Source: Beroe forskalii (Eukaryota > Ctenophora > Nuda > Beroida > Beroidae). Taken from it: DNA of 64,000 nucleotides. The DNA is taken from positions 248,001-312,000 of the forward strand of contig WFMF01000152.1 in the NCBI GenBank assembly GCA_011033025.1, given 5' to 3'. The notes beneath the pieces are model-generated. The model made no database searches, was not told the DNA's origin, and saw nothing but the letters and a program-made list of their open reading frames with translations. Shown here one piece after another: positions 13,234 through 47,717 of the stretch; positions within the stretch are counted from its first letter, which is position 1; each line of letters begins with the position of its first letter. A program made the translations under genes and the position numbers.

Positions 13234-13589
13234 CAGAGAACCTTATAACGTTTTAGGGCACTCAGGGCACAGGGCACTACGTCAGGGCACCAGGGCACTA
13301 CGTCAGGGCACTGATCCTTGAAGTAGTGCCCTGAACAGGGCACAGGGCACTACGTCAGGGCACCAGGGCACTACGTCAGGGCACTGGGCCACTACGTCTA
13401 TGTTATGTGATATTGTTATTCTATTGTTTTGAAGGGTTTTATTGTTATTGTAAGGATACTATTATGATTTTATTGTGATTTTGGAGTAAAGTGCAATCTG
13501 TAATCGTGTACAAATCTGTATTAGCCAATTTTGAGGGTACTTGTAGGCGTGCAATAATAAGTATTAGTGCACTCCTCACATTGGCTAAT

Positions 13590-13772
13590 ACACTAAGAGC
13601 ATGGCAAATGGTCATGACGCTAATAAAATTATTGCACTCGGCTTCGCCTCGTGCAATAATTTGGTATTGTCGCACTCGGCCTGCTCCTCGTGCGATGCAA
13701 TACAAATTATTGCACTCGGCTACGCCTCGTGCAATAATTTATATTAGCGCATTCCCAGCCATGCTCTAAGCG
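13590..13772. mobile_element. Palindromic insertion nested in FB20-1
   Basis: The block from CTAAGAGCATGG to CCATGCTCTAAG is an imperfect inverted repeat. It contains two hairpins of the form TTATTGCAC, a CTCGGCTTCGCCTC-like loop, and GTGCAATAA (near 13627-13660 and 13707-13740). FB20-2 and FB20-3 lack this block at the equivalent place, which shows it is a separate insertion. Confidence 0.65.
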
Positions 13773-15116
13773 TATAATAGTGCATTCAATACATACATTC
13801 AATACATACCTGCACTTAAGACTTCAGTGTTATTTTCATAACCTTATTCGTGGTGTGTCCCATTGTTATTTTAAGGCTCTGAAGAAGGACACCAGGGCAC
13901 TACGACAGGGCACTGGGCCACTACGTTATGTCTACGTTATCTGATATTGTTCTGAATGGTCTTATTATTGTTGTAAGTATACTATTCTGATTCAACTGTT
14001 ATTCCAAGGATCTTATTGTTATTCTTGGGTTCCTATTGTTATTCTAAGAGTCATTCAACGTTGGGGCACTGGGCACTATGTCGGGGCACTGCCTCACTGG
14101 GGCACTATGTCTACGTCATGTGATATTGGTATTCTATTGTTTTGCACGGTTAAGGCCATGGTTCTGTTTATCATTTTAAGGATCCTATTGTTATTCTATG
14201 GATCCCATTGTTATTCTAAGATTCGAAGGGTCCTATTGTTATACTTAGGGTTCTGCTGCTACTGTTTGGGTCTCATTGTTATTATTAGTGCTCTATTGTT
14301 ATTCCAAGGGTCCTATTGTTATTCTAAGGCTCTAATTGTTATTTCAAGGGCCCTATTGTTATTTTAAGGGTCCTATTGTTACTTCAAGGGTCATATTGTT
14401 ATTTCAAGGGTCCTATTGTTATTTGAAAGGTCCTTTTGTTATTCTAAGCGTCCTATTGTTATTTTAAGGGTCTCATTGTTATTTTAAGGGCCCTATTCTC
14501 ATACTAAGGGTCCTATTGTTATTCTAAGCCTCTTATTGTTATTTCAAGGGTCCTATTGTTATTTTAAGGGTACTATTGTTATTTCAAGGGTCTTATTGTT
14601 ATTTGAAGGGTCCTTTTGTTATTCTAAGAGTCATTCAACGTTGGGGCACTGGGCACTACGTCGGGGCACTGGCTCACTGGGGCACTATGTCTACGTCATG
14701 TGATATTGGTATTCTATTGTTTTGCACGGTTAATGCCATGGTTATGTTTATCATTTTAAGGATCCTATTGTTATTCTATGGATCCCATTGTTATTCTATG
14801 GCCTCTATTGTTATTCTAAGATTCGAAGGGTCCTATTGTTATACTTAGGGTTCTGCTGCTACTGTTAGGGTCTCATTGTTTTTATTAGTGCCCTATTGTT
14901 ATTCCAAGGGTCCTATTGTTATTCTAAGGCCCTTATTGTTATTTCAAGGGTCCTATTGTTATTTTAAGGGTCATATTGTTATTTCAAGGGTCTTATTGCT
15001 ATTTGAAGAGTCTTTTTGTTATTCTAACGGCCCTTTTGTTATTCTAAGCGTCCTATTGTTATTTTAAGGGTCTTATTGTTATTTCAAGGTCCCTTTTCTC
15101 ATACTAAGGATCCTAT

Positions 15117-15425
15117 GGGGCCATCCATAAAGGACGTCCGCAATGAGGGGGGAGGGGGAGTCTGGCCAATGCGGACGTTTGCGGACGTAGGGGGGAGGGG
15201 AGTGTTGGGCTCAATGCGGACGTCCGCAATTCATGGAAATTTTGGGCGATTTGACGGCTATTTCACTAGAAAATCATAGAATTTCAGGGCAAAAATGACG
15301 ACCCAAAATTTTCAAGAAAAATGCGGACGTCCGGGGGAGGAGGGTTTCTGGATTGCGGACGTTTGCGGACAAGGGGAGGGGGTCTCGTGGCCGAAATTTT
15401 GCGGACGTCCTTTATGGATGGCCCC
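15117..15425. mobile_element. Harbinger-like MITE, copy 1, nested in FB20-1
   Basis: Termini GGGGCCATCCATAAAGGACG and its reverse complement bound a 309-bp element flanked by TAT on both sides (15114-15116 and 15426-15428). It interrupts a 20-bp repeat unit of FB20-1, so it is younger than that arm. Internal GCGGACGT motifs recur several times. It is too short for a transposase. Confidence 0.85.
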
Positions 15426-16528
15426 TATTGTTATTCCAAGGGTCTTATTGTTATTTCAAGGGTCCTTTTGTTATTCTAAGTGCCTTATTATTATTCTAAA
15501 GGTCCTATTCTTATACTAGAATCCTATTGTTAATCTATGGTTTCTTTTGTTTTTTAAGGCCTCTTGTTATTATAAGATTCTAAGGGTCCTATTGTTATAC
15601 TTTAAGGGTTCTGCTGCTACAGGTAGGGTCCCATTTTTATTATTAGTGCCCTATTGTTATTCTCAGGGTCCTATTCTCTCACTAAGGATCCTATTGTTAT
15701 TATAAGTGTCCTATTGTTATTTTAAGGGTCCTATTGTTCTATTGTTATTTTAGGGGTCTTATTGTTATTTGAAGGGTCCTTTTGTTATTCTAACGGTCCT
15801 TTTGTTATTCTAAGTGTCTTACTATTATTCTAAAGGTCCTATTCTTTACTAAGGGTCCTTTTTGTTAATCAATGGTTCCTATTGTTATTTTAAGGCCCTT
15901 GTTATTATAAGATTCTAAGGGTCCTATTGTTATACTTAGGGTTCTTATTGCTACAGGTCCCATTTTTTTATTAGTGTCTTATTGTTATTCTAAGGGTCCT
16001 ATTCTGACACTAAGGATCCTATTGTTATTATAAGTGTCCTATTGTTATTTTAAGGGTCCTATTGTTATTTTAGGGGTCTTATTGTTATTTGAAGGGTCCT
16101 TTTGTTATTCTGACGGTCCTTTTGTTATTCTAAGTGTCTTATTATTATTCTAAAGGTCCTATTCTTTATTAGAATCAATGGTTCCTATTGTTATTTTAAG
16201 GCCCCTTGTTATTATAAGATTCTAAGGGTCCTATTGTTATACTTAGGGTTCTGCTGCTTCTGTTATTATTGTGCCCTATTCTTATTCTAAGGGTCATTTT
16301 CTCATAATAAGGATCCTATTGTTATTCCAAGGGTCCTTTAGTTATTATAATTGTCTTATGATTATTTAAGGGTCCTATCCTCATACTAAGGATCCTTTTG
16401 ATATTCCAAGGTTCCTATTGTTATTCTAAGGGCACTGGGACACTACGTCATGTGATTGTGATATTGGTACTCTACTGTTTTTCAAGGGTTCTATTGTTAT
16501 TCTTGGGGTCGCATCGTTATTCTAAGAG

Positions 16529-16558
16529 TCATTCTACGTCCGGGCACCCGGGCAATAC
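16529..16558. other. FB20 central spacer, orientation A
   Basis: A 30-bp non-repeat spacer containing GTCCGGGCACCCGGGC, bounded by CTAAGAG on the left and CTCTTAG on the right. It is identical to the reverse complement of the spacer in FB20-3 (43553-43582) and missing from FB20-2. Confidence 0.85.
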
Positions 16559-18382
16559 CTCTTAGAATAACAATAGAGGCCTAACAATAACAATAGGTTC
16601 CTTTAAGTGTTAAAATAGGACCCTTAGAATAATAATGAGACAATTAGATAACAAAAGGACCCTTAAAATAATGTAATAAGACCCTTATTAATACAACAAC
16701 ACGACCCATTGGAATAGCAATAGGATCCTCAGTATGAGAATAGGACCCTTAAAATAACAATAGGGTCCTTAAAATAACAAAACGACCGTTAGAATAAGAA
16801 AAGGACCCTTGAAATAACAATAAGAGCCTTAGAATAACAATAGGACCCTTGAAATAATAATAGGATCCTTAGTGTGAGAATAGGACCCTTAAAATGGGAC
16901 CCTCACAGTATAGCAGCAGAACCCTAAGTAGAACAATAGGACCCTTAGAATCTTATAATAACAAGAGGCGGGAGGCCTTAAAATAAAAATAGGAACCATA
17001 GATTAACAATAGGATTCTAATATAAGAATAGGACCTTTAGAATAATAATAATAAGGCACTTAGAATAACAAAAGGACCCTTAAAATAACAATAAGACCCT
17101 TAAAATAACAATAGGACCCTTGGAATAACAATAGGATCCTTAGTATGAGAATAGGGCCCTTAAAATAACAATAAGACCCTTAAAATAACAATAGGACGCT
17201 AAGAATAACAAAAAGACCGTTAGACCGTTACTAACTATAAAGACTTGGTGAACAGACTTCAGCAATTCTGTACTGTAGTTTGTAGATAAAAATAACAAAA
17301 GGACCCTTCAAATGACAATAGAACCCTTAAAAATAACAATAAGAGGCTTAGAATAACAATAGGACCCTTGGAATAACAATAGGATCCTTAGTATGAGAAT
17401 AGGGCCCTTAAAATAACAATAAAACCCTTCAAATAACATTAGGACGCTTAGAATAACAAAAGGACCGTTAGAATAACAAAAGGACCCTTCAATTAACAAT
17501 AAGACCCTTGAAATAACAATAAGAGCCTTAGAATAACAATAGGACCCTTGGAATAACAATAGGATCCTTAGTATGAGAATAGGACCCTTAGAATAACAAT
17601 GGGATCCATAGAATAACAATGGGATCCATAGAATAACAATAGGATCCTTAAAATGATAAACAGAACCATGGCCTTAACCGTGCAAAACAATAGAATACCA
17701 ATATCACATGATGTAGACATAGTGCCCCAGTGAGCCAGTGCCCCGACGTAGTGCCCAGTGCCCCAACGTTGAATGACTCTTAGAATAACAATAGGAACCC
17801 AAGAATAACAATAAGATCCTTGGAATAACAGTTGAATCAGAACAGTATACTTACAACAATAATAAGACCATTCAGAACAATATCATATAACGTAGACATA
17901 ACGTAGTGGCCCAGTGCCCTGTCGTAGTGCCCTGGTGTCCTTCTTCAGAGCCTTAGAATAACAATGGGACACACCACGAATAAGGTTATGAAAATAACAC
18001 TGAAGTCTTAAGTATGTATTGAATGTATGTATTGAATATACGATTACAGATTTGTACACGATTCGATTACAGATTAGTGCACGATTACAGATCGCACTTT
18101 ACTCCTATTCCTAAATCACAATAAAATCATAATAGTTATAGTATCCTTACAATAACAATACAACCCTTCAAAACAATAGAATAACAATATCACATAACAT
18201 ATACGTAGTGGCCCAGTGCCCTGACGTAGTGCCCTGGTGCCCTGACGTAGTGCCCTGTGCCCTGTTCAGGGCACTACTTCAAGGATCAGTGCCCTGACGT
18301 AGTGCCCTGGTGCCCTGACGTAGTGCCCTGGTGCCCTGACGTAGTGCCCTGTGCCCTGAGTGCCCTAAAACGTTATAAGGTC

Positions 18383-18590
18383 CTCTCGAAGAAAATGTAC
18401 CATTTCAAAAAATAGTTAGAATGAAACTTTTTTGACTGATATACTTTGCCTTGGTTAAATAGTGCAGTTTAATCTTATTCTGACTGTTATAGCTCGTTTA
18501 TATTTGAGTATATACTTTTTCGATGCTCTAATTTTGACAAATATCTTCCTGTTCATTTCCTGAACATTTCTTTATTGTAAAAATCCCTTA
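18383..18590. other. Flank of FB20-1, nothing recognised
   Basis: AT-rich sequence following the right end of FB20-1. No feature is recognised. Confidence 0.35.
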
Positions 18591-18594
18591 AATT

Positions 18595-18770
18595 TTTCGG
18601 GGGCTCCGCTCCCTAACCCCCTGGTAGGGGCTCGCCCCTGGACTCCGCTTGTCAGGCGTAAATAATGGGTCTGACGATGTCAGACAAGACTCCGCTGGGG
18701 GCTGCGCCCCCAGACCCCTGCCGCAGCTTGTTCGCTTCGCTCGCGGCGCAAGGGCCCCTCCCGGAAAAAA
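18595..18770. repeat. GC-rich dispersed repeat
   Basis: Short self-complementary GC-rich blocks (GGGGGCTGCGCCCCCAG and GGTAGGGGCTCGCCCC) alternate with a TCTGACGATGTCAGA palindrome next to TAAATAATGGG. The palindrome and its neighbour match, in reverse, the family seen at 467-493. The 76-78-residue ORFs on both strands have no recognisable motif. Confidence 0.5.
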
Positions 18771-19160
18771 TCATGGCTACGGGCCTGTTTGCGGCGTATG
18801 ATAGCGCGCAGATGTTCTTAACTATTTTTGGATGGAAAATACATTTGTGCACCACAAAAAAGAACCCAAGCGCGTCGCAATACGCCATGCATTAAAAGTT
18901 CGAGACACCACTGTAATATTTATGCGCCGTATTTATCAAAATATTCAATTGGCGATTAAATGATCACTTGATCGAATCGATCTCTTGAAGAAATTCTTCT
19001 CACCGGAATTAAAAGTTTTATATTTAATACATTTCAAATCAATTATAAACTGCAATTAATTGTATGATTTAGATTTTAATCCTGTATGACCAATTCCACC
19101 TGTTTACTCGGAACCAATTTATCAATTATTCATTATGAAGTTATCGTTTTATTTCTGTTA

Positions 19161-19457
19161 GGAGCCATCCATAAAGGACGTCCGCAAAATTTCGGTCATT
19201 TTAGACCCCTCCCTCCCCCTTTGTCCGCATTTCAGAAACCCCTCCCTCCCCCCAGGACGTCCGCATTTTTCATGAAAATCTTTTGAGTAATAATTTCTGG
19301 GCCCAAAATTTTACGATTTTCTGGTGAAATGACCGTCAAATCGGCCAAAATTTCCATAATTTGCGGACGTCCGCATTTGGCCAAACACCCCCCTCCCCCC
19401 TATGTCCGCATTGGCCAGACTCCCCCCTCATTGCGGACGTCCTTTATGGATGGCCCC
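19161..19457. mobile_element. Harbinger-like MITE, copy 2
   Basis: 297 bp with termini GGAGCCATCCATAAAGGACG and CGTCCTTTATGGATGGCCCC, flanked by TTA at 19158-19160 and 19458-19460. Orientation is opposite to copy 1 as judged from the internal GCGGACGTCCGCA blocks. Confidence 0.88.
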
Positions 19458-19460
19458 TTA

Positions 19461-22400
19461 TCTGTTTGTAAACTATTTTTAAAACAGCAAAAATTCAGGG
19501 AATTGAATTTAAAACCGATGTCGAAAAACTCAACTTTAACCCAAGATTAACCTCATAATCGAACATTATCAAAGCCCCCCCCCCCCTCCTCATGAGGAGA
19601 ATCTTGCGTAATCATGATTAACCCCGCCCTCCCCCCCCTCTACTTGAGCAGAAAATTGACTATGTAAAACTAAATACTCGATTACTCGAATATTGATAAT
19701 TGATAATGATTGTTTCAACTTTGAAAGTTTTGAAAAATGTTGCTATTGAGTCGAGTTTCCAAAGTTTGCCAAAAAATACCAAGGATTTGTGGCAAAAATT
19801 TCAATAATTGTGATGATAATTGTATATTTTGATTTAATGTAATTTACCATCAAAACCCGTACCCCCTTCCCCTCCCCGTAGTCAAACGTAAGCATTTGAA
19901 AACAACCCCTCCCCCTTGATGTTTACGTGATACTGATATGTGAACGATCCCTAAGAAGAAACTGTCGATTATTGTTATAAATGGTAAGATGTTTGGAACA
20001 ATTTTGGGAAGAAATGCATTTTGAGACGAAATGCATTTCTTCTGTATGATTATTGATTATATGGATAATTTTAAATGTGAGAGACTGACGTTAGTGGGGT
20101 CCTTTTCAATTCAAATTATTCTATTTATTATTATTCCTAGGCAGATGTTCAATGATCATGACGATGAAAGAATGAGAACCATGAGTCAGCGTTGGAGGAG
20201 AAATTTGTGATTGTCTGACAAGGAGAAATTGTGTTTTATCTTGCTTCTCTCATCTACTGAAAACTTCGTCTACGTACTGATCGTAGGGTAAGTTTATTAT
20301 TAAGGCCCGCATATAAAAGTGGCTCGCAGGTGGAGCGGTTGACAAATTGAAAGCACCAATTATGTTTGTCCACTTTCGATATAAATTCAATCGATATAAC
20401 AGCAGAATCGTGCTCTTTTATCTATATCAATCCATTCATCAATCGAGCGATCTGTACACATAATCATTATAAGCGGGTTGAATCTTGTTTATTATGAATT
20501 TTTGATTGATTGATTTTTGATTGAATTTGGAGCCCTTGTGGGAGATTGCCTTTAGTACACCGTACGGGCGGAAATTATATCATGGAATCTCTAATATAAT
20601 TTCGCAACCTCTGTACTATTTTGTATGTAGTAACGTCTTTTGTCCTTTTGTAGACACATTTTCGAAGTTTCGAGCTAGAAGCCTTACAAGGCGTAGGTTA
20701 CAAAACCTCTTTTCATATTATACCAAAGTTAATGAGTCGTTTTTCATTTTAATTGAATAATGTTTTATTGTCTTAGTTTTCCTTGTTCAACTGAGTAACA
20801 TTTATGCCACTGATAAGGCATAGTTTTATGTTAAACCATAGGAAATTCACTCAAAAACTTTCAACATTTCAAACCCTTCGAGCAAACCCGGAAATCAAAA
20901 AAAAATGGGAAGTTCATTTCGAAATCAAATGAACAAAGCTGGAATCAAGGAATTGCATAATATTATAAGATTTAAGCAACATTTTGCCGAATTTGAGGAC
21001 AGCACTCTCAACCACGCGCGACAGTTTATACAATTGTATAACTTAGACAGAATGTATACTTCTTTACATTATGTTTCTCTGAACGAAGATTGTAGGTACC
21101 TATCTATACTTGTTCAACAGGGGGACATTTTCTGAAAAAGTTTAGATGGGGTTGTCTTAATCTTTATTAGACCTTGTTCAGTTGTTAACAAATTGTTTAC
21201 AAATTGTATACTGGAACATTGTATAGAGAATGCAACTCACCAGTGGTACACGCTTCAAGCAGGACGATGTTATTCCGTAGAGCAACTGTTCTGTGAACTA
21301 GAGCCTGTAGAGTGTGCCTAGCCATGCGATTCCCAATGTATCATTATTTATTGCTAGCAGGGGGTGATGGTTAGACTGGGAATATTTTAATATTTCAGAT
21401 AGAATTATTGATAAACTGATAAAGGTCAAAGGACTATGATCGATGAATGGAATAAACAATCGGTCAACTATCGGTCATCATAGTTAGTAAAAGTAACACT
21501 GAATGTGAATTGGCGTTCAAATTATCAGGAATTTAACCTCAAATTCATGATCAATCTTATATCCAGAAGATACAATGGAAACCTTCACAAAATTAAGATG
21601 TATCCCCAGCAAATGGAGATATTTATAACTCGATTATATCCTAAGCATGTCAAATTGGTCCCGTTCCAGATATCGCTTCTTGGCGTCAACCAGACCAGGG
21701 AATTAATAGGGTTAAATGTTAATTATAATGGTTGGCTGCTGGCATTCGCACAATCAATATAACAGTCCAATAACCATGAGTTTAATAAGAGTTTTATCAA
21801 ATAGAACACTAGACAGACGGATTCACGGTATTTTTGCTAAATTTAGCCGGTTGACTGCAGGACTGACCATTTTTTGGAGATTCTTCAAGTAGCATCCCTT
21901 CCAAGAAAACGGCCCACTCTTAAACCGGTGAAATAAAGACCTATAAGGTAAGAACTAACAGACAGAGCGTCAGAGCAGCTAAGAAACAAACACCACACTG
22001 ATACGAGACGCGTGGCAATGAAACTGAATACTGTGACGGCGGCCCTTGTCTACACACACCCAATATAAACACCTGTCGTGTTCCGGCATCAGGTTCAGCC
22101 AGCAGTCAGCACTGATAAGTGTTGCAATTTTCTAAATTAAAGGACCATGTTACAATCGGCGATATACCATTGAATTAGCGTACTCAAGGGTGATAAGAAG
22201 AGGTCAAATTAATTTCCTCTAAAAGCTTCCAAAGAATCACGCTCTGAATACTTATTTTTACCTCTATAATTTTCAACTGAACAGGTCCAAATTTTCAATT
22301 GATCAATCAGCCCACGGGATGACTGAAAACTCTTGGTCTATGTCATGAAGATATTACAGGTATGCTTATACGTCGCCGATAAACCAGACAGCTTCAATAT

Positions 22401-30286: not shown

Positions 30287-33200
30287 CAGAGAACCTTATA
30301 ACGTTTTAGGGCACTCAGGGCACAGGGCACTACGTCAGGGCACCAGGGCACTACGTCAGGGCACTGATCCTTGAAGTAGTGCCCTGAACAGGGCACAGGG
30401 CACTACGTCAGGGCACCAGGGCACTACGTCAGGGCACTGGGCCACTACGTCTATGTTATGTGATATTGTTATTCTATTGTTTTGAAGGGTTTTATTGTTA
30501 TTGTAAGGATACTATTCTGGTTTTATTGTGATTTAGGAGTAAAGTGCAATCTGTAATCGTGTACTAATCTGTAGTCGTGTATTCGATACATACTAGATAC
30601 CTACACTTAAGAATTCAGTGTTATTTTCATAGCCTTATTCGTGGTGTGTCCTATTGTTATTTTAAGGCTCTGAAGAAGGACACCAGGGCACTACGACAGG
30701 GCACTGGGCCACTACGTTATGTCTACGTTATCTGATATTGTTCTGAATGGTCTTATTATTGTTGTAAGTATACTATTCTGATTCAACTGTTATTCCAAGG
30801 ATCTTATTGTTATTCTTGGGTCCCTATTGTTATTCTAAGAGTCATTCGACGTTGGGGCACTGGGCACTACGTCGTGGCACTGGCATGGCTCAATGGGGCA
30901 CTATGTCTACGTCATGTGATATTGGTATTCTATTGTTTTGCACGGTTAAGGCCATGGTTCTGTTTATCATTTTAAGGATCCTATAGTTATTCTATGGATC
31001 CCATTGTTATTCTATGGCCTCTATTGTTATTCTAAGATTCGAAGGGTCCTATTGTTATACTTAGAGTTCTGCTGCTACTGTTAGGGTCTCATTGTTATTA
31101 TTAGTGCCCTATTGTTATTCTAAGGGTCCTATTCTCCTACTAAGGATCCTATTGTTATTCCAAGGGTCCCATTGTTATTCTAAGGCTCTTATTGTTATTT
31201 CAAGGGTCCTATTGTTATTTTAAGGGTCCTATTGTTATTTTAAGGGTCCTATTGTTATTTCAAGGGTCTTATTGTTATTTGGAGGGTCCTTTTGTTATTC
31301 TAACGTCCCTTTTGTTATTCTAAGCGTCCTATTGTTATTTTAAGGGTATACTTGTTATTTTTAGGGTCCTATTGCTATTCTAAGGGTTCTATTGTGATAC
31401 TCAGGATCCTATTGTTATTCCAAGGGTCCTATTGTTATTTTAAGGGTCTTATTGTTATTTCAAGGGTCCTATTGTTATTTTAAGGGTCCTTTTGTTATTC
31501 TAGGGTCCCTTTTGCTATTCTTAGCGTCCTATTGTTATTTTAAGGGTCTACTTGTTATTTTTAGGGTCCTTTTGTTATTCTAAGGGCCCTATTGTGATAC
31601 TCAGGATCCTATTGTTAATCAAAGCGTCCTATTGTTATTTTAAGGGTCTTATTGTTATTTCAAGGGTCCTTTTGTTATTCTAAGTGCCTTATTATTATTC
31701 TAAAGGTCCTATTCTTATACTAGAATCCTATTGTTAATCTATGGTTCCTATTGTTATTTTAAGGCCTCTTGTTATTATAAGATTCTAAGGGTCCTATTGT
31801 TATACTTAGGGTTCTGCTGCTACAGTTAGGGTCCCATTTTTATTATTAGTGCCCTATTGTTATTCTAAGGGTCCTATTCTCACACTAAGGATCCTATTGT
31901 TATTTGAAGGGTCCTATTGTTATTTTAAGGGTCTTATTGATATTTGAAGGGTAGATGGATTTCACCCATCCCTAGCGCGCAACACTCGGAAATTTGGAGG
32001 GTCGTGTTGCAGACTAGCAACGGAAAAAAATGGCGCGCAGTGGAGGGTAGGGTAGAATCCTACTATTTTAAGGGTCCTATTGTTATTTTAAGGGTCTTAT
32101 TGATATTTGAAGGGTCCTTTCGTTATTCTAACGGTCCTTTTGTTATTTTAAGTGTCTTACTATTATTCTAAAGGTCCTATTCTTTATTAGAATCCTTTTG
32201 TTAATCAATGGTTCCTATTGTTATTTTAAGGCACCTTTTATTTAAAGGGTCCTATTGTTATACTTAGGGTTCTGCTGCTACTGTTATTATTGTGCCCTAT
32301 TGTTATTCTAAGAGTCTAAGGGTCGTTTTCTCATAATAAGGATCCTATTGTTATTCCAAGGGTCCTATTGTTATTTTATGGGTCTTATTGTAATTTTAAG
32401 GGCCCTATTCTCATACTAAGGATCCTATTGTTATTCCAAGGGTCCTATTGTTATATCAAGAATCTTATTGTTATTTTAAGGGTCCTTTTGTTATTCTAAC
32501 GGTCCTTTTGTTATAATTGTCTCATTACTATCTAAGGGTCCTATCCTCACACTAAGGATCCTTTTGTTATTCCAAGGATCCTATTGTTATTCTAAGGGCA
32601 CTGGGGCACTATGTGATTGTGATATTGGTACTCTATTGTTTTTCAAGGGCTCTATTGTTATTCCTGGGGTCGCATCGTTATTCTTATTAGAATAACAATA
32701 GAGGCCTAGCAATAACAATAGGTTCATATAGAAAAGGACCCTTATAATTCGAGACAATAAGATAACAAAAGGACCCCTTAAAATAACAATAAGACCCTTA
32801 ATACAACAATACGACCCATTGGAATAACAATAGGATCCTCAGTATGAGAATAGGAACCTTAGAATAACAATAGGTTCCTTTAACAAAACCGTTAGAATAA
32901 CAAAAAAGACCCTTGAAATAACAATAAGAGAATAACAATAAGAAAATAACAATAGGATCCTTAGTGTGAGAATAGGACCCTTAGAATAACAACAATAATA
33001 AAAATGGGACCCTAACAAGTATAACAGCAGAACCCTAAGTATAACAATAGGACCCCTTTATTATAACAAGAGGCCTTAAAATAAAATAGGAACCATAGAT
33101 TAACAATAGGATTCTAGTATAAGAATAGAACTTCAAGAATAATAAGGCACTAGAATAACAAAAGACCCTTAAAATAACAATAAGACCCCTTAAAATAACA

Positions 33201-34400
33201 ATAGACCTAATTAGATTTGAAAGGGCCCTTTTGAATCTAATAAGAGCCTTAATATAATTAAATTTATCTAATAGCTCTATTAGATAAATTAATTATTATT
33301 ACTATTTTAGATCTTATTGTTCTAAGGGCCCTGTGATAACAGGACCCCTTGGAATAACAATAGGATCCTTAGTATGAGAATAATAGAATAACAATAAGAC
33401 CCTAAAAATAGCAATAAGACCCTTAGAATAACAATAGGACCCTTAAAATAACAATAAGAGCCTAAGAATAACAATAGGACCCTTGGAATAACAATATGAT
33501 CCTGAGTATCACAATAGGACCCTTACAACAACAATAAGATCCTTAAAATAACAATAGGATCCTTGGAATAACAATAGGATCCTTAGTATGAGAATAGGGC
33601 CCTTAGAATAACAATAAGACGCTTAAAATAGCAATAGGACCCTTAGAAAATAACAAAAAAGGACCGTTAGAATAACAAAAAGGACCCTTCAAATAACAAT
33701 AAGACCCTTAAAATAACAATAGGACCCTTAAAATAACAAGTAGACCCTTAAAATAACAATAGGACGCTAAGAATAACAAAAGGGACGTTAGAATAACAAA
33801 AGGACCCTTCAAATAACAATAAGACCCTTAAAATAACAATAGGACCCTTGAAATAACAATAGGACCCTTGAAATAACAATATTCAGAATAACAATAGGAC
33901 TCTTGATATAACAATAGGATCCTTAGTATGAGAATAGGACCCTTAGAATAACAATAGGGCACTAATAATAACAATGAGACCCTAACAATAACAGCAGAAC
34001 CCTAAGTACAACAATAGGACCCTTCGAATCTTAGAATAACAATAGAGGCCATAGAATAACAATGGGATCCATAGAATAAGTCAATAACTATAGATCCTTA
34101 AAATGATAAACAGAACCATGGCCTTAACCGTGCAAAACAATAGAATACCAATATCACATGACGTAGACATAGTGCCCCATTGAGCCATGCCAGTGCCACG
34201 ACGTAGTGCCCAGTGCCCCAACGTCGAATGACTCTTAGAATAACAATAGGGACCCAAGAATAACAATAAGATCCTTGGAATCAGAATAGTATACTTACAA
34301 CAATAATAAGACCATTCAGAACAATATCAGATAACGTAGACATAACGTAGTGGCCCAGTGCCCTGTCGTAGTGCCCTGGTGTCCTTCTTCAGAGCCTTAA
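30287..34400. mobile_element. FB20-2: giant foldback, right end missing
   Basis: The left end CAGAGAACCTTATAACG, 21-bp GGGCAC subterminal repeats and 20-bp arm repeats match FB20-1. Arms meet near 32680-32695 without the 30-bp spacer (GTTATTCTTATTAGAATAAC), so the centre has been deleted. The right arm stops at CAGAGCCTTAA near 34400, and the terminal block of about 300 bp with GGGCAC repeats is absent, so the copy is truncated. A 113-bp insertion lies at 31951-32063. Confidence 0.87.
31951..32063. mobile_element. Small MITE-like insertion in FB20-2
   Basis: The block starts GTAGATGGATTTCACCC and ends GGGTAGAATCCTAC, with CCCTA..GCGCGC and its near reverse complement inside each end. It breaks the 20-bp array. 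Its right end resembles the sequence at 89-111 near the window start, which suggests a dispersed family. Confidence 0.5.
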
Positions 34401-37070: not shown

Positions 37071-37119
37071 AAAGGCGTTTTTCTTTTTCTCATACTTTCT
37101 ATATGAACGTCATTATGCA

Positions 37120-37720: not shown

Positions 37721-37829
37721 AGGCTCCCCCCCCGATGGTATAATGCATCTCTAGCTTGGCAGTATTTTTGATAGTGGATGCAAGACTGCAATCAAAATGC
37801 CTGTTACTGTCACAAGGATACATTTAGAC

Positions 37830-38335: not shown

Positions 38336-38339
38336 ACAC

Positions 38340-38700: not shown

Positions 38701-39230
38701 TCTCAACGAGGTTTTAAGGTGGTGATTTAAAAAAACTTTTAAAAGGTTTTTCCAAGCTACCAGGAAAAAAAACTGGGATAAATTTTTGTTCATAAAGGTA
38801 GGTCGCTTTTTAAAAGGGTGATAAAAAATTTAAAAACCCAACTTTGGAAGAGTTGTTTGGCAATCTTTCTTAAAGGCCATCTTGATGGGAGGATCTTTTT
38901 TTAATTTTTAAATTATCACTAAGAGCCCCGGGGTGAAAAAAGAAAAAGGGTTGGTTTGGGGAGAGAGTGTTGGGGCTTAGAGGGTCTTTCCTGGGGGCAA
39001 AGTGGAGGTCTTTCGGATGTGGTTTCCCTTGGGACGTGAAAAGTCTTAGATGAGGGGTCGTTGGGGGGAGAGGTGTTGGGGGCGGGAGGTTTAGGGGGAA
39101 AAACCGGGGTCGTTCAGACTGCAAACCCCGTGAAGGGGCTTGGGGGTGAAAAGGGTTTCGGGTGGGGGGCGGCTGGGAACTGCAAAAGGGCTTCGGTGGA
39201 AGGGGGTCTTTGGGGCGTGATGGTCCAAAA
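38700..39230. other. Probable low-quality sequence beside gap
   Basis: Composition changes to stretched homopolymers (runs of A, T and especially G: GGGGGTGAAAAGGG style) right up to the N run. This is typical of a poor contig end. ORFs across it, including one that continues through the Ns, should not be trusted. Confidence 0.6.
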
Positions 39231-39330
39231 NNNNNNNNNNNNNNNNNNNNNNNNNNNNNNNNNNNNNNNNNNNNNNNNNNNNNNNNNNNNNNNNNNNNNN
39301 NNNNNNNNNNNNNNNNNNNNNNNNNNNNNN
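39231..39330. other. Scaffold gap, 100 N
   Basis: Exactly 100 N, the conventional size for a gap of unknown length. Sequence on the two sides should not be assumed adjacent. Confidence 0.99.
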
Positions 39331-39428
39331 ACAACAGAATTGAATATGAGGAAACCATGAACACTCTCAACATTGACACTACTAAGAGCTATTCATATGG
39401 TTACTCCACAGACAGCAGTGATGATTGA
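39331..39428 (+). CDS. C-terminal fragment of unidentified protein
   Basis: Immediately after the gap an open frame reads NRIEYEETMNTLNIDTTK and then a Ser/Tyr-rich acidic end SYGYSTDSSDD before TGA. The composition looks like a genuine disordered C-terminus, and AATAAA follows at 39579, about 150 nt after the stop, as expected for a 3' UTR. Only 31 residues are visible and no family can be assigned. It could also be chance coding sequence. The rest would lie in the gap or on an upstream contig. Confidence 0.4.
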
Positions 39429-39845
39429 GGTGACCAGTTAAATATGCCTACTAATCTGCAGAAGTTGTACCTTTGTTTGTGTTGAGATTTGGAGTGCATA
39501 TTTGTATCGTGCTCAGTTTATAACAGGGGAAATCAGGCCTCAAAAGTTAACTACAACATACTAAAGAGTAAAAAGTAAAATAAAATAAAATAAAATAAAC
39601 AATTATGTAAAGATGCAGACGCCGACTCTAATGGTACTAATACAATGATATTGGAATTATTTTTATTTCTAGTTTTATTCACTTCCATTGCATTTTTCAA
39701 TGTCATTGTAGTATTGTATGCATTAAATGTTTGTTTCATTTTCAATAACATCAAAGCTCATCAATTCATTTTACCAAATTTGCTAACTCTGAATGGCGCA
39801 CAAATGAGGCTCGAAGTCAATATTCGTGTAACTTTCTTTTGTTAA
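39429..39845. other. Possible 3' UTR and spacer
   Basis: Contains (AAAAT)n with AATAAA at 39579. No further gene seen; overlapping 66-67-residue ORFs on both strands lack motifs. Confidence 0.35.
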
Positions 39846-40100
39846 GGGTGTGAACGCGCTGCAAGCCTACACACGCCACGCAAGCCACACAAGGATAAAC
39901 GTGTTTAACTTCCCCAACCAGCGCCCTGTTCTGCGCGCGCGCCGCAGTTCCTCCTCAGAACAGCCGTAGGCCGCGCGAGCCGCGCGCGTAAGCACGTGGT
40001 TACACAGTGCAAACAGGGATATACGTGTTTATAGCTTCTTAAAGCCGCATAGCTATAGGTGTGTGTACGCGCGCGGCGCTTTCCTACGGGACACTATAGG
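39846..40100. repeat. GC-rich dispersed repeat, two copies
   Basis: Two blocks (39846-39912, and 40008-40092 partly inverted) carry the GATATACGTGTTTA and GCATAGGTGTGTGTACGCG motifs found at 350-1346. Between them is AACCAGCGCCCTGTTCTGCG, as at 696-715. This confirms a dispersed family. Confidence 0.6.
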
Positions 40101-40299
40101 CCAGTTTCGCGATGCGCGGCACTAGGGAGATTTTACATCGCGCGTCAATTTAGAAAGTGTACCCTGTTTAGGGCTATCTAATAGATTGTCATATTCTCTT
40201 CAACAGTTTTTCTAATTCAGTTAAGTCTGAAGATTATCACAGTGTGTTTCATTTTCCCGAATCCCGAAATTTAGCATGATTTCTAGGCCACCAAACTTG

Positions 40300-40690
40300 G
40301 GCAATTTGCCATGCCTATAACTTTTTTCTACTCGAGTCTACCACGGACAGACTTATATCCCCTTACACGTTGAACCCTTGCTGACAAGATCCAATCAACC
40401 TCATAGCGCGGAGAAGCGCGGAACATGGTCAAATCGGCCTTCAAAGATTGGTAGGTTATCGAAAAATGGCACGCGCTATTGCCCGAATACGTGCAATGAC
40501 GCGTGTCATCTTAACAACGCATCCATCTTTGACGGCCGATTTGACCATGTTCCGCGCTTCTCAGCGGAATAAGAACGTTTGGATGTTGTTGGCAAGAGTC
40601 TAAAAAGGAAGAGGGTGAAAGTCTGATAAGAGTAGGATTCGGTGGTAAAAAGTTACAGACACGACAAGTCCCGTAAAATAAGCTCAAATG
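40300..40690. mobile_element. Foldback element with 40-bp near-perfect inner arms
   Basis: The core inverted repeat pairs about 40402-40445 (GAGAAGCGCGGAACATGGTC...) with about 40525-40573. Weaker symmetry extends outward (CTTATATCCCCTTACACG against the complement of the GAGGGTGAAAGTCTG side). The 64-residue ORF across it starts and ends in the two arms and is an artefact. No transposase is present. Confidence 0.65.
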
Positions 40691-41253
40691 TTCGCTATAA
40701 CGCAGCTAAGATAACCACGAGAAAAGAGAGTATATGTACATATTTCAAAGCACAAAGGATAATCCCCATTTGGAAACCATAAACAGAACAAAACTTAAAA
40801 CACATGAAAGCCAACTTTAGATTACTGCAAAATATGGTTATTTTACTCCGAATAATACTCTTATCATTCCATTGAAAATTGAAGGGAGCATTCAGCCTAC
40901 TGAAGTACTTAAATATGCTCATTAAGTTGATATCCCGAAAAGCTGATTAAATATGAAGATGGACAGAATCACATTCATGAGCTTCAAACTCAAAACAATT
41001 ATTCACTGTGACTATTTTATCTGTACAGTGTACCTATTTCATGTTTGATAGTGATACCCTTTCGAAGACTGAAGAGTTGCTTTAGTTTCGCACTGATCAC
41101 TGCATGAGTACTGCACCTGGTTCATCATCACAGTCCTGAGGCACGACTAGGGTTCCCTGAAGAAGATCTCAGTAGTCATGGGTTAATTTGAGAAGTTCAA
41201 GGAACCAATTTATCCCCATCTCCCTACCTGAGATAAACGTTTTTTAAGATCAA
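40691..41253. other. Intergenic, nothing recognised
   Basis: No gene, RNA or repeat recognised between the foldback at 40.3 kb and FB20-3. Confidence 0.35.
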
Positions 41254-41581
41254 TCGAGGAACAGAGAACCTTATAACGTTTTAGGGCACTCAGGGCACAG
41301 GGCACTACGTCAGGGCACCAGGGCACTACGTCAGGGCACCAGGGCACTACGTCAGGGCACTGATCAGGGCACCCTAGTGCCTACGTCAGGGCACCAGGGC
41401 ACTACGTCAGGGCACTGGGCCACTACGTCTATGTTATGTGATATTGTTATTCTATTGTTTTGAAGGGTTTATTGTTATTGTAAGGATACTATTATGATTT
41501 TATTGTGATTTAGGAGCAATCTGAAATCGTGTACTAATCTGTAATCGTGTATTCAATACATACTAGATACCTACACTTAAG

Positions 41582-41845
41582 CCAGTATTTTATTTTTAAA
41601 AATTATTTTGTTTATTTTGTGTCCTGAATATTTTAAGGCTATCATAAAACAGTAGGTGATGTGTTTCATTCCACAATGCGCCCTGTGACCACTAATTAAT
41701 AGATTTTGTAACGGAAAGTATCATAGATTATACATAACCGCAAGCACCAGGCATAGGCTCGTCTTTCAATATATCCTAAGTTGATTATTGAATTAATTGC
41801 ATCATTCTGGGCTCCACAAAATGTATGTCGACAACAAAAAATATA
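41582..41845. other. Foreign block in FB20-3 left arm
   Basis: FB20-2 reads directly from TACACTTAAG to the ATTCGTGGTGTGTCC segment with only a short stretch between. In FB20-3 about 260 bp of unrelated AT-rich sequence lies there. No terminal repeats or duplication were seen, so the mechanism is unclear. Confidence 0.55.
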
Positions 41846-43552
41846 TTCGTGGTGTGTCCTATTGTTATTTTAAGGCTCTGAAGAAGGACACCAGGGCACT
41901 ACGACAGGGCACTGGGCCACTACGTTATGTCTACGTTATCTGATATTGTTCTGAATGGTCTTATTATTGTTGTAAGTATACTATTCTGATTCAACTGTTA
42001 TTCCAAGGATCTTATTGTTATTCTTGGGTTCCTATTGTTATTCTAAGAGTCATTCAACGTTGGGGCACTGGGCACTTCGTCGGGGCACTGGCTCACTGGG
42101 GCACTATGTCTACGTCATGTGATATTGGTATTCTATTGTTTTGCACGGTTAAGGCCATGGTTCTGTTTATCATTTTAAGGATCCTATTGTTATTCTATTG
42201 TTATTCTATGGATCCCATTGTTATTCTATGGCCTCTATTGTTATTCTAAGATTCGAAGGGTCCTATTGTTATACTGTTATTGCTGTTACTGTTAGGGTCT
42301 CATTGTTATTATTAGTGCCCTATTGTTATTCTAAGGGTCCTATTCTCATACTAAGGATCCTATTGTTATTCCAAGGGTCCTATTGTTATTCTAAGGCTCT
42401 TATTGTTATTTCAAGGGTCCTATTGTTATTTTAAGGGTCCTATTGTTATTTCAAGGGTCTTATTGTTATTTGAAGGGTCCTTTTGTTATTCTAACGGTCC
42501 TTTTGTTATTCTAAGCGTCCTATTGTTATTTTAAGGGTCTTATTGTTATTTTAAGGGCCCTATTCTCATACTAAGGATCCTATTGTTATTCCAAGGGTCC
42601 TATTGTTATTCTAAGGCTCTTATTGTTATTTAAAGGGTCCTATTATTGTTATTCTAAGGGTCCTATTGTTATTTTAAGGGTCTATTGTTATTTTAAGGGT
42701 CCTATTGTTATTTTAAGGGTCTTATTGTTATTTTAAGGGTCCTTTGTTATTCTAACGTCCCTTTTGTTATTCTTAGCGTCCTATTGTTATTTTAAGGGTC
42801 TACTTGTTATTTTAAGGGTCCTATTGTTATTTTAAGGGTCTTATTGTTATTTGAAGGGTCCTCTTGTTATTCTAACGGTCCTTTTGTTATTCTAAGGGTC
42901 CTATTGTTATTTTAAGGGTTTTATTGTTATTCTAAGGGCCCTATTCTCATACTAAGGATCCTATTGTTTTTCCAAGAGTCCTATTGTTATTTTAGGATCC
43001 TACTGTTTAAATTCCAAGGGTCCTATTGTTATTTTAAGGGTCCTCTTGTTATTCTAAGTGCCTTATTATTATTATTCTAAAGTTCCTATTCTTATACTAG
43101 AATCCTATTATTAATCTATGGTTCCTTGTTATTATAAGATTCTAAGGGTCCTATTGTTATACTTAGGGTTCTGCTGCTATACTGTGAGGGTCCCATTTTT
43201 ATTATTAGTGCCCTATTGTTATTCTAAGGGTCCTATCCTCACACTAAGGATTCTATTGTTATTTCAAGGGTCCTATTGTTATTCTAAGGCTCTTATTGTT
43301 ATTTCAAGGGTCCTTTTCTTATTCTAACGGTCGTTTTGTTATTTTAAGGACCTTATTGTTATTCTAAGGGTCCTATTCTCATACTGAGGATCCTATTGTT
43401 ATTCCAATGGGTCGTGTTGTTATATGAAGGGTCTTATTGTTATTTTAAGGGTCCTTTTGTTATCTAATTGTCTCATTATTATTCTAAGGGTCCTATTCTA
43501 ACACTTAAAGGAACCTATTGTTATTGTTAGGCCTCTATTGTTATTCTAAGAG

Positions 43553-43582
43553 GTATTGCCCGGGTGCCCGGACGTAGAATGA
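43553..43582. other. FB20 central spacer, orientation B
   Basis: The 30-bp spacer, containing GCCCGGGTGCCCGGAC, is the exact reverse complement of the spacer in FB20-1. The flanking asymmetric words (GCGACCCC side and AGGCCTCT side) are also swapped, although the outermost ends of the elements keep the same left/right form. Confidence 0.85.
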
Positions 43583-46274
43583 CTCTTAGAATAACGATGC
43601 GACCCCAAGAATAACAATAGAACCCTTGAAAAACAGTAGAGTACCAATATCACAATCACATGACGTAGTGTCCCAGTGCCCTTAGAATAACAATAGGAAC
43701 CTTGGAATATCAAAAGGATCCTTAGTATGAGGATAGGACCCTTAAATAATCATAAGACAATTATAATAACTAAAGGACCCTTGGAATAACAATAAGACCC
43801 TTGAAATAACAATAAGAGCCTTAGAATAACAATAGGACCCTTGAAATAACAATAGGATCCTTAGTGTCAGAATAGGACCCTTAGAATAACAATAGGGCAC
43901 TAATAATAAAAATAGGACCCTAACTGTAGCAGCAGAACCCTAAGTATTATAACAATAGGACCCTTAAATTCCTATAATAACAAGAGGCCTTAAAATAACA
44001 ATAGGAACCATAGATTAACAATAGGATTCTAGTATAAGAATAGGACCTTTAGAATAATAATAAGGCACTTAGAATAACAAAAGGACCCTTGAAATAACAA
44101 TAAGAGCCTTAGAATAACAATAGGACCCTTGGAATAACAATAGGATCCTTAGTATGAGAATAAGGCCCTTAAAATAACAATAAGACCCTTAAAATAACAA
44201 TAGGACCCTTAAAATAACAAAAGGACCGTTAGAATAACAAAATGACCCTTCAAATAACAATTAGACCCTTGAAATAACAAGTAGACCCTTAAAATAACAA
44301 TAGGACGCTAAAAATAACAAAAGGGACGTTAGAATAACAAAATGACCCTTCAAATAACAATAAGACCGTTAAAATAACAATAGGACCCTTCGAATAACGA
44401 TAGGACCCTCAAAATAACAATAAGAGCCTTAAAATAACAATGGGACCCTTGGAATAACAATAGTATCCTTAGTATGGGAATAGGGCCCTTAAAATAACAA
44501 TAAGGCCCTTAAAATAACATAATGACCCTTAGAATTACAAAAGGACCGTTAGAATAACAAAAGGACCCTTCAAATAACAATAAGACCCTTGAAATAACAA
44601 TAGGACCCTTAAAATAACAATAGGACCCTTAAAACAATAACAATAGGACCTAGGAATAACAAAGGAATAAACCTTAAATAACAATAGGACCCTTAAAATA
44701 ACAATAAGGCCCTTAAAATAACAATAGGACCCTTAAAATAACAATAGGGCCCTTAAAATAACAATAGGGCCCTTAAAATAACAATAGGACCCTTCGAATA
44801 ACAATAGGACCCTTAAAATAACAATAAGAGCCTTAGAATAACAATAGGACCCTTGGAATAACAATAGGATCCTTAGTATGAGAATAGGGCCCTTAAAATA
44901 ACAATAAGACCCTTAAAATAACAATAGGACGCTTAGAATAACAAAAGGACCCTTAGAATAACAAAAGAACCCTTCAAATAACAATAAGACCCTTGAAATA
45001 ACAATAGGACCCTTCGAATAACAATAGGACCCTCAAAATAACAATAAGAGCCTTAAAATAACAATGGGACCCGTCGAATAACAATAGGACCCTTGGAATA
45101 CCAATAGGACCCTTAAAATAACAATAAGACCCTTAAAATAACAATAGGACCCTTAAAATAACAATAGGACCCTTAAATAACAATAAGAGCCTTAGAATAA
45201 CAATAGGACCCTTCGAATAACAATAGGACCCTTAAAATAACAATAAGAGCCTTAGAATAACAATAGGACCCTTGGAATAACAATAGTATCCTTAGTATGG
45301 GAATAGGGCCCTTAAAAAGTTAAAATAACAATAAGGCCCTTAAAATAACATAATGACCCTTAGAATTACAAAAGGACCGTTAGAATAACAAAAGGACCCT
45401 TCAAATAACAATAAGACCCTTCAAATAACAATAGGACCCTTAAAATAACAATAGGACCCTTAAAATAACAATAGGACGCTTAGAATAACAAAAGGGACGT
45501 TAGAATAACAAAAGGACCCTTCAAATAACAATAAGACCCTTAAAATAACAATAGGACCCTTAAAATAACAATAGGGCCCTTAAAATAACAATAAGAGCCT
45601 TAGAATAACAATAAGACCCTTGGAATAACAATAGGACCCTTAAAATAACAATAAGAGCCTTAGAATAACAATAGGACCCTTGGAATAACAATAGGATCCT
45701 TAGTATGAGAATAGGGCCCTTAAAATAACAATAAGACCCTTAAAATAACAATAGGACCCTTAGAAACAATAACAAGGACCCTTAGAATAACAAAAGAACC
45801 CTTCAAATAACAATAAGACCCTTGAAATAACAATAGGACCCTTAAAATAACAATAGGACCCTTGAAATAACAATAAGAGCCTTAGAATAACAATAGGACC
45901 CTTGGAATAACAATAGGATTCTTAGTATGAGAATAGGACCCTTAGAATAACAATAGGGCACTAATAATAACAATGAGACCCTAACAGTAACAGCAATAAC
46001 AGTAAACAATAGGACCCTTCGAATCTTAGAATAACAATAGAGGCCATAGAATAACAATGGGATCCATAGAATAACAATAGGATCCATAGAATAACAATAG
46101 GATCCTTAAAATGATAAACAGAACCATGGCCTTAACCGTGCAAAACAATAGAATACCAATATCACATGACGTAGACATAGTGCCCCAGTGAGCCAGTGCC
46201 CCGACGAAGTGCCCAGTGCCCCAACGTTGAATGACTCTTAGAATAACAATATGAACCCAAGAATAACAATAAGA

Positions 46275-47212
46275 TTTAGACCTAGCAGGACACCTTATGA
46301 ATTATTTATATTAGTCTTCACATTTGTGAATTGACTGAAGTATTTTGAAGCTTTTTTGAAGAGGCAGCAATCAGCATAAGAAAGTAGATTCCATCAAAAC
46401 GTTCATTTCCATAAACTTTTGCAAAATCAATGGTACAAACATATCGAAAAGATACAATCACGAAGTGAATATTAAAGACTCACACATTCTCACATTCTCA
46501 TGAATCCATTCACATTTGAATGGTAATTGTACGAGTATAACATGATTGGTAATGTGTAAATCATCAGCAACAGACCAATACATCGGAATGTGAACACTGA
46601 AGGACCGACCAAAAAAAGTGTACAATATCAAAATTGAGAACGAAAGAACTAGGTACCACTCATGGTGTAGGTACATCGACATTTGCAATTGCAATTACTC
46701 TCAAAAATGTATAGCAGCCACATTCCATTCTATACCTGTGTTACGAGCAGACGTCACGTGACATACTTGTCTAGCATATAACGGTGTGCAAATGTACACA
46801 GTAATTACAATGTGTTGTGTTGATTGGTATTTGGTGTTCGTTTTTGTTCATTTGCTAAATTCATTAAACGGGTCAGGTAAAACAGGGTAAATAAAGGTAA
46901 ATAAACACTAAATAGGGTAAATAAACAGGGTAAATAAAAAGGGTAAATAAACAGGGTAAACAAACAGGGTAAATAAACAGTGTAAGCATGTTTAATTAAC
47001 TTTTGTAACATTCGGTAATTCAGCGTGTCAGAATCCGAATATAAATCTAGAGATGGACTTTCGAAATCTACTGATGGAGTTTTGAAATCTACTGATGGAG
47101 TTTCTAGAGAGAGACTTTCGCGCGTGTTTATATAACTCCATCTCTGGTTTCGTAACTCCATCAGTGATGGTTATACGTATACAGCACGCGCGAAAACAAC
47201 ACGGCCGTGTAT
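46275..47212. other. Foreign block in FB20-3 right arm
   Basis: About 940 bp unrelated to FB20 replaces a segment that is about 70 bp in FB20-2. It includes a GGGTAAATAAACA minisatellite (46865-46985) and two GAAATCTACTGATGGAGTTT units (47046-47105), with a CGCGCG-containing inverted repeat near 47115-47200. The 118-codon reverse ORF reads these repeats and is not considered a gene. Confidence 0.5.
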
Positions 47213-47717
47213 ATAACGTAGTGGCCCAGTGCCCTGTCGTAGTGCCCTGGTGTCCTTCTTCAGAGCCTTAAAATAACAATAGGACACACCACGAATAAGG
47301 TTATGAAAATAACACTGAAGTCTTAAGTGTAGGTATCTAGTATGTACTGAAAAACAATAGAATAACAATATCACATAACATAGACGTAGTGGCCCAGTGC
47401 CCTGACGTAGTGCCCTGGTGCCCTGACGTAGTGCCCTGTGCCCTGTTCAGGGCACTAATTCAAGGATCAGTGCCCTGACGTAGTGCCCTGGTGCCCTGAC
47501 GTAGTGCCCTGGTGCCCTGACGTAGTGCCCTGTGCCCTGAGTGCCCTAAAACGTTATAAGGTCTCGAGGAATCCGAAACAGTACAATACGCGCGCCGAGA
47601 AATGCGGCGCGCGAAGAGTTTATAATTGCTCGCGGAAAATGCTTTTCTTGATTGAAAGCTCATTTGGGAAGACCCTTTTGAAAATTTATTGCCAAATTGT
47701 GACAAAGATGCCACAAA

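What the first reader, a model, noticed from the sequence alone, without database searches (positions are those of the whole stretch)
13234..47563. FB20: giant foldback family built from a 20-bp minisatellite
Three copies (13234-18382, 30287-34400, 41262-47563) share ends CAGAGAACCTTATAACG / CGTTATAAGGTC, 21-bp GGGCAC subterminal repeats and two opposed arms of CCTATTGTTATTCTAAGGGT repeats. Together they make up about 15.5 kb of this window. Foldback elements are known (Drosophila FB, Galileo), but I do not recall one with kilobase arms of a 20-bp unit. They are almost entirely palindromic, so they could form hairpin DNA or long double-stranded RNA. The 20-bp unit is close to two helical turns.
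Basis: partly seen in the sequence, partly recalled or inferred. Interest (0 to 1): 0.85.

Follow-up and report, generated by a model that had tools for sequence, protein, structure and literature searches.

The report
Jumping DNA with long repetitive hairpin arms
This is a family of a few dozen non-coding jumping DNA elements in an unidentified genome, each built from two kilobase-long mirrored arms of a 20-letter repeat; it is real and cleanly inserted, but it belongs to a known kind (foldback transposons).

Summary
Two copies (13234-18387 and 41262-47563) are full foldback elements; the third (30287-34400) lacks its right end. Together they fill about 15.5 kb.

The family is not confined to the window. 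I count 35 loci on 27 contigs of the 216-Mb genome with FB20 ends or subterminal sequence. Of 8 elements held with an A-type and a B-type end, 7 have a perfect 8-bp target-site duplication, and one has a paralogous empty site. These are inserted DNA transposons, not plain satellites.

New details: elements join two different 6-bp caps (CAGAGA and GAGAGG); the ~137-bp core lies in both orientations relative to the caps, with at least two flips on a tree; 7 of the 35 loci sit on one 386-kb contig. No transposase was seen in the 23 stretches examined, and no autonomous partner was found.

The nearest published design is Tm1 of root-knot nematodes (Mutator/Phantom): asymmetric terminal motifs, tandem-repeat inverted repeats, 8-10-bp duplications. 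New member of a known kind, with long arms.

The parts
13234..18387 (+). Copy 1 (W1), cap A left, cap B right, 5154 bp; flanking 8-mers do not match (GCCGAAGG / GAAGAAAA)
13234..13239 (+). cap A (CAGAGA) of copy 1
18382..18387 (-). cap B (GAGAGG read inward) of copy 1
13262..13398 (+). 21-bp GGGCAC subterminal repeats, left end of copy 1
18203..18359 (-). 21-bp GGGCAC subterminal repeats, right end of copy 1
13997..16432 (+). forward arm of 20-bp units, copy 1 (several arrays)
16426..16562 (+). central core (137 bp) of copy 1, '+' relative to cap A
16561..17830 (-). reverse arm of 20-bp units, copy 1 (two arrays)
13562..13779 (.). self-inverted repeat nested in copy 1; also found at L041 8709-8924 (97%)
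30287..34400 (+). Copy 2 (W2), cap A left, right end missing (truncated)
32592..32684 (+). partial central core of copy 2, '+' relative to cap A
41254..41261 (.). left target-site duplication TCGAGGAA of copy 3
41262..47563 (+). Copy 3 (W3), cap A left, B-type right end that lost its last 5 bp, 6302 bp
41996..43550 (+). forward arm of 20-bp units, copy 3
43549..43685 (-). central core of copy 3, inverted relative to cap A although 100% identical to copy 1's core
43679..46112 (-). reverse arm of 20-bp units, copy 3
46285..47215 (.). unrelated dispersed repeat lying in the right arm of copy 3; 46290-46900 matches 39 other places at 91-95% (40 of 210 candidates scored)
47564..47571 (.). right target-site duplication TCGAGGAA of copy 3

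Best explanation
FB20 is a family of non-autonomous cut-and-paste DNA transposons of foldback architecture. SHOWN in the full elements held: cap A - TIR core (ACCTTATAACGTTTTAGGGCAC) - GGGCAC subterminal repeats - an arm of roughly 50-120 units of a 20-bp repeat - a ~137-bp core - the mirrored arm - subterminal repeats - TIR core - cap B, with 8-bp duplications of varied target sequence on the outside. In 23 stretches examined, no frame of 130 aa or more lies inside an element except frames read through the repeats. INFERRED: a transposase supplied in trans by an unidentified autonomous element recognises the caps, TIR core and probably the GGGCAC repeats, because a second family in the same genome shares the core and the GGGCAC repeats but not the 20-bp unit; it usually works on one A end and one B end, and makes cuts staggered by 8 bp. 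INFERRED: the 20-bp arms are an expansion that travels with the element and changes length by deletion, duplication and slippage; recombination between the opposed arms has flipped the core relative to the caps at least twice. Clustering on one contig suggests short-range re-insertion, or retention in a repeat-rich region. The superfamily is most likely Mutator (Phantom-like), by architecture only; I put that at about 0.5.
For: 43 FB20-type ends among 77 pattern matches, the reversed-pattern control giving 4 (my sorting). 35 loci on 27 contigs (my count). 8-bp flanks identical in 7 of 8 elements held with an A-type and a B-type end (W3, L042, L043, L049, L051, L054, L057; not W1). Paralogous empty site about 290 bp from L049's element, target present once as CACTGtAG, 145 of 172 columns identical across the junction. 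Of 8 held elements with two intact caps, 7 are A/B and one is B/B (L070); L070 has no matching flanks (by eye). 22 arms of 11 elements give the same unit consensus, 1487 units, letter-shuffle controls 0-1; units were picked by likeness to that consensus, so the agreement is partly built in. Core orientation relative to cap A: 6 '+' and 6 '-' of 12, five of them judged from a single cap; the tree's supported branches force at least 2 changes, one of them between W1 and W3, whose cores are identical. 7 of 35 loci on C195 (0.06 expected, P 4e-13) and 3 on C474 (P 3e-6). A second family shares the core and GGGCAC repeats, with no 20-bp unit in the 13 stretches held of it, 211-1371 bp each.
Against: No autonomous copy or transposase was linked: none of the 46 MULE or 23 hAT matches lies within 20 kb of an FB20 end, comparing coordinates by eye. 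W1 has mismatched flanks, W2 no right end, and L050 has lost one cap. Nine of the 20 stretches fetched (L039, L040, L041, L045-L048, L052, L056) show only a short terminal piece or one arm, though some run towards contig ends. Orientation of the core is clustered on the tree, not random. The clustering of loci could be retention in poor chromatin rather than local transposition. The two flips could be exchange of the ends by gene conversion rather than inversion of the core.
Confidence: 0.87

Rival explanations
1. A dispersed minisatellite or satellite that has been inverted in places; the 'ends' are just conserved edges.
For: Arrays of the unit dominate the sequence. C347 has 9 exact unit matches on one strand and no FB20 end in the list. 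The 41-bp minisatellite next door shows that the genome carries dispersed minisatellites.
Against: Perfect 8-bp duplications in 7 of 8 elements, an empty site, shared terminal sequence at 35 loci and A/B cap pairing in 7 of 8 are signs of transposition.
Confidence: 0.05
2. Assembly artefact: collapsed or mirrored contigs make false inverted arms.
For: Inverted repeats of this length are hard to assemble; the short copy L070 holds a run of N; C770 and C914 carry the same flank at 95%, which suggests duplicated haplotypes.
Against: The arms of one element differ (73-88% alike over their best stretch) and mostly have different lengths; a mirrored artefact would give near-identical arms. Outer flanks differ on the two sides and share 8 bp.
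Confidence: 0.03
3. A hAT rather than a Mutator partner mobilises FB20 (8-bp duplications; cap A reads CAGAG, like hAT ends, the latter recalled).
For: 8-bp duplications in 7 elements. hAT dimerisation matches at C614 and C913 lie 4.7 and 10.7 kb from ends of the related GAGACA family.
Against: The C614 stretch 452350-456050 shows other repeats and no match to the related family's held sequence (the first ~1.1 kb inside that end was not fetched). The two hAT matches lie in different orientations relative to those ends. 0 of 7 duplications fit nTnnnnAn by eye (motif recalled). Cap B is GAGAGG.
Confidence: 0.2
4. A P-superfamily partner, as for Galileo.
For: Galileo is foldback-like with internally repeated TIRs (PMC3573991 passages).
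Against: PF21787 gave no match in this genome, but its control rang nowhere, so absence is not shown. Galileo duplications are 7 bp in the passage read.
Confidence: 0.1

Closest known systems
Tm1 of Meloidogyne (Mutator/Phantom, foldback-like; PMC3169594, passages read)
   Same: Asymmetric short terminal motifs outside the inverted repeat, usually one kind at each end; composite TIRs whose largest part is a short tandem repeat of varying copy number; 8-10-bp duplications with no target consensus; non-coding members; an exceptional element with the same motif at both ends and no duplication, as L070 here.
Drosophila FB (Foldback; PMC7642927, passages read)
   Same: End sequence, spacer, then mirrored arrays of short repeats round a middle region; unequal arms; the authors call repeat-mediated inversion within elements conceivable.
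   Different: Blocks of five 27-31-bp repeats; 9-bp duplications; 467-479-bp end sequences. (10- and 20-bp repeats in FB are recalled, from no call.)
Galileo (P superfamily; PMC3573991 and PMC3688188, passages read)
   Same: Long TIRs with internal tandem repeats; the longest TIRs are in copies without the transposase frame; internal repeats hold further binding sites for the transposase's THAP domain, a model for what GGGCAC may do here.
   Different: ~210-bp internal repeats, TIR up to about 1.26 kb in D. mojavensis, 7-bp duplications.
Tetris of Drosophila virilis (PMC4079207, passages read)
   Same: Non-autonomous foldback; tandem repeats inside TIRs; 8-9-bp duplications in its three complete copies; no partner found; high density in beta-heterochromatin.
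   Different: ~220-bp units; TIR up to 1,735 bp; its repeats also form satellite-like arrays.

Membership tests
Foldback transposon (structural class) | long inverted repeats, internally repetitive, making up most of the element | tested here: met
Foldback transposon (structural class) | target-site duplications at dispersed insertion sites | tested here: met
   7 of 8; empty site
Mutator/Phantom (Tm1-like) | 8-10-bp duplications without target consensus | tested here: met
   8 bp in 7 of 8; the length also fits hAT
Mutator/Phantom (Tm1-like) | asymmetric terminal motifs outside the TIR | tested here: met
   CAGAGA / GAGAGG in 7 of 8 held elements with two intact caps; L070 is B/B
Mutator/Phantom (Tm1-like) | MULE (plus FLYWCH) transposase inside, or shared ends with a coding element | tested here: inconclusive
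   46 MULE matches exist, none within 20 kb of an FB20 end; FLYWCH not searched
Drosophila FB | 27-31-bp repeat blocks and 9-bp duplications | tested here: not met
   20-bp unit, 8-bp duplication
Galileo / P superfamily | P-type transposase in the family | tested here: inconclusive
   PF21787 no match, control silent
hAT | 8-bp duplications of form nTnnnnAn (recalled) | tested here: not met
   length met; motif 0 of 7 by eye
hAT | hAT transposase in an element with the same ends | tested here: inconclusive
   23 hAT matches, none within 20 kb of an FB20 end; C614 stretch shows no link
KDZ (Zisupton and kin) | KDZ transposase in the genome | tested here: inconclusive
   PF18758 no match, control silent

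The most novel reading that the evidence does not exclude
The opposed arms act as standing recombination substrates: they invert the core inside individual elements (W1 and W3 carry identical cores in opposite orientation), and between neighbouring copies of the C195 cluster they could invert or delete host DNA. If so, FB20 would be a self-rearranging element whose cluster is a hotspot of structural polymorphism, and the long imperfect hairpin could also feed small-RNA silencing.
Probability: 0.25. Interest if true: 0.55.

Novelty: new member of a known kind. Interest (0 to 1): 0.36.

Why it matters
It extends the foldback class to longer arms built from a short unit than the passages read report, with clean evidence of transposition. 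The two end types make orientation readable, so flips of the core can be counted and placed on a tree; the FB passage read calls such inversion only conceivable. The shared GGGCAC ends of a second family help to separate what a transposase probably reads from what is passenger expansion.

Tried and rejected
An equal 6:6 split of core orientation first looked like free, continual flipping. The tree rejected that reading: orientation is clustered (2 changes needed; 15 and 11 of 500 shuffles as low for the two labels), so one old flip between two subfamilies and one recent flip in W3 suffice.

The 931-bp insert in copy 3 was considered as a remnant of the autonomous element; it is an abundant separate repeat. 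The related GAGACA family was considered as the partner: L076 and L077, the two stretches tested, have no stop-to-stop frame over 120 aa, and its far end was not found. The hAT link at C614 failed. KDZ (PF18758) and P (PF21787) gave no match with silent controls, so nothing is concluded. The 41-bp inverted pair beside copy 3 was considered as a second foldback family: 278 + 387 matches genome-wide, but in the cut listing an opposed pair within a few kb is seen only here. Fresh inverted duplication in each copy was rejected: the partner arm is the best match for 3 of 20 arms (W3_A, W3_B, L050_A). No Rfam family reached its gathering score in the window. The organism was not identified.

Rows dropped or weak: the core at L042 1202-1333 has no readable cap and was left out of the orientation count; W2, L044, L050, L053 and L055 were oriented from one cap; L044's right border was set by homology, W2 is truncated and L050 lacks a cap; one search's printout was cut in the middle.

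Not in print: searches of the held library; I saw titles and starts of abstracts, and passages of five papers. None of what I saw describes this unit. Repbase and Dfam were not available, so this is weak.
Full report
THE OBSERVATION. The window is G000:C195:248001-312000 of a 216-Mb genome in 1134 contigs. The end CAGAGAACCTTATAACG occurs three times in the window and the opposite end CGTTATAAGGTC twice. Copy 1 is 13234-18387 and copy 3 is 41262-47563; copy 2 (30287-34400) has lost its right end. Tandem repeat analysis shows opposed 20-bp arrays and 21-bp GGGCAC subterminal repeats. Unit counts are 84/50, 74/55 and 67/117 (forward/reverse) against 0 in one letter-shuffled copy of each. Across 11 elements, 22 arms and 1487 units, each arm has the consensus CCTATTGTTATTCTAAGGGT. 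Units were chosen by likeness to that sequence (at least 14 of 20), so the agreement is partly built in and only differences between columns mean much: positions 5, 6, 8, 10 and 11 are kept at 0.96-0.98, positions 13, 19 and 2 at 0.57-0.70.

GENOME-WIDE COPIES. A 22-bp end pattern with up to 3 mismatches has 77 matches against 4 for the reversed control: by my sorting 43 of FB20 type, 33 of a related type (ACCTTGTCACG or close to it) and one between the two. Adding a 287-bp query (40 of 124 candidates were scored), I count 35 loci on 27 contigs. Seven lie on the 386-kb contig C195 and three on the 164-kb contig C474 (binomial P 4e-13 and 3e-6 for random spread). C770 and C914 share 95% over 409 columns, flank included, and may be two haplotypes of one insertion, so the number of independent insertions may be 34.

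TRANSPOSITION. The two ends are not identical: one carries CAGAGA (A), the other GAGAGG (B). Of 8 held elements with two intact caps, 7 are A/B (W1, L042, L043, L049, L051, L054, L057) and 1 is B/B (L070), the latter without matching flanks. W3 has A and a B-type end shortened by 5 bp. Flanking 8-mers are identical in 7 of the 8 elements with an A-type and a B-type end: TCGAGGAA, TCGAATTT, GGATGTTA, CACTGAAG, GTATTTTA, GTGGTGTC and TGAAATTG. W1 fails; W2 has no right end to test; L050 has lost one cap. Next to L049's element a paralogous copy of the target stands without it; left and right flanks align through it with the 8-bp site once (CACTGtAG; 145 of 172 columns). Insertion with an 8-bp duplication is therefore shown.

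ARMS AND CORE. Arms measured from end to core are 1.7-3.9 kb in 10 elements, nested inserts included. Partner arms align at 73-88% over their best stretch. The partner is the top match for 3 of 20 arms; for the other 17 the best match is an arm of another copy, so the arms look inherited from older copies rather than made afresh. The 137-bp core faces one way relative to cap A in 6 elements and the other way in 6, of 12 (five judged from one cap); C770 would make it 6:7. A tree of the core with 100-bp flanks needs at least two changes of orientation; the five '-' elements other than W3 form one side of a supported branch, and W3 sits with W1, whose core is identical but opposite. So the core has flipped relative to the caps at least twice, and there is no sign that it flips continually. 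Exchange of the ends by gene conversion would look the same.

CODING. In 23 stretches (20 fetched and the three window copies) the stop-free frames of 130 aa or more inside the elements read through the repeats; others lie outside or across an end. They were not all scanned against Pfam.

OTHER DNA IN THE COPIES. Copy 3 holds a 931-bp stretch (46285-47215) of an abundant repeat; its 611-bp query found itself and 39 other places at 91-95%, with 40 of 210 candidates scored. Copy 1 holds a self-inverted repeat at 13562-13779 that is also present at L041. Neither belongs to FB20.

A SISTER FAMILY. Ends of the form GAGACAACCTTGTCACGTTTTAGGGCAC were read first at 8 of about 33 matches of that type, then at three more. 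They share the TIR core and the GGGCAC repeats, but the 13 stretches held of this family have no 20-bp unit. The likely reading, an inference, is that the transposase reads the core and GGGCAC while the 20-bp arms are passengers. At least seven of these ends face an inner block CACTTTTTAGGGCAC 1.2-2.2 kb away (listing cut); sequence shared by copies runs on past that block, so the true far end is unknown.

PARTNER. MULE (46 matches) and hAT (23 matches) transposases exist in the genome. None lies within 20 kb of an FB20 end by coordinates. Two hAT matches lie 4.7 and 10.7 kb from sister-family ends, but in different orientations relative to them, and the part of the C614 stretch fetched shows no link. 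KDZ and P models gave nothing, with controls that rang nowhere. The partner is unknown.

COMPARISON. By architecture the closest is Tm1 (PMC3169594; passages read): asymmetric terminal motifs, tandem-repeat TIRs, 8-10-bp duplications, and even one element with the same motif at both ends and no duplication, as L070. Drosophila FB (PMC7642927), Galileo (PMC3573991, PMC3688188) and Tetris (PMC4079207) share the foldback form with other units and, in the passages read, TIRs of up to about 1.7 kb where a length is given. Membership in Mutator/Phantom is not shown, because the transposase test is inconclusive.

VERDICT. Real, transposed, apparently non-autonomous foldback family; a new member of a known kind, notable for arm length, paired caps and the flips of the core. 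Hairpin RNA, small RNA and ongoing mobility are untested.

Noticed in passing
window 47996-50336: A 41-bp minisatellite in two opposed arrays (48002-48835 and 49706-50336) round a ~870-bp middle; genome-wide the unit has 665 matches (up to 1 mismatch), and in the cut listing this is the only opposed pair within a few kb.
   Followed up: partly
window 8833-10098: A 37-bp tandem array of about 34 copies.
   Followed up: no
window 3222-8116: Broken LINE-type reverse transcriptase ORFs on both strands (RVT_1 in the two scanned).
   Followed up: partly
window 55430-56236 (-) and 10942-11301 (+): Likely host gene exons: a Laminin_G_3/pentaxin-like protein, and an RCC1-repeat exon.
   Followed up: partly
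L059-L066, L076, L077: Sister element family with GAGACA caps, same TIR core and GGGCAC repeats but no 20-bp unit; far end unknown; interior of four copies is 65-69% like the repeat nested in copy 3.
   Followed up: partly
L067 and L074 (C770, C914): The same FB20 insertion flank on two contigs at 95%, suggesting uncollapsed haplotypes or a duplication.
   Followed up: partly
L058 1-2950: Long array of a short repeat readable in several frames, on the same fetched stretch as an FB20 copy.
   Followed up: no
G000:C347:540872-541773: Nine exact 20-bp units on one strand with no FB20 end in the lists: possible free array or truncated arm.
   Followed up: no
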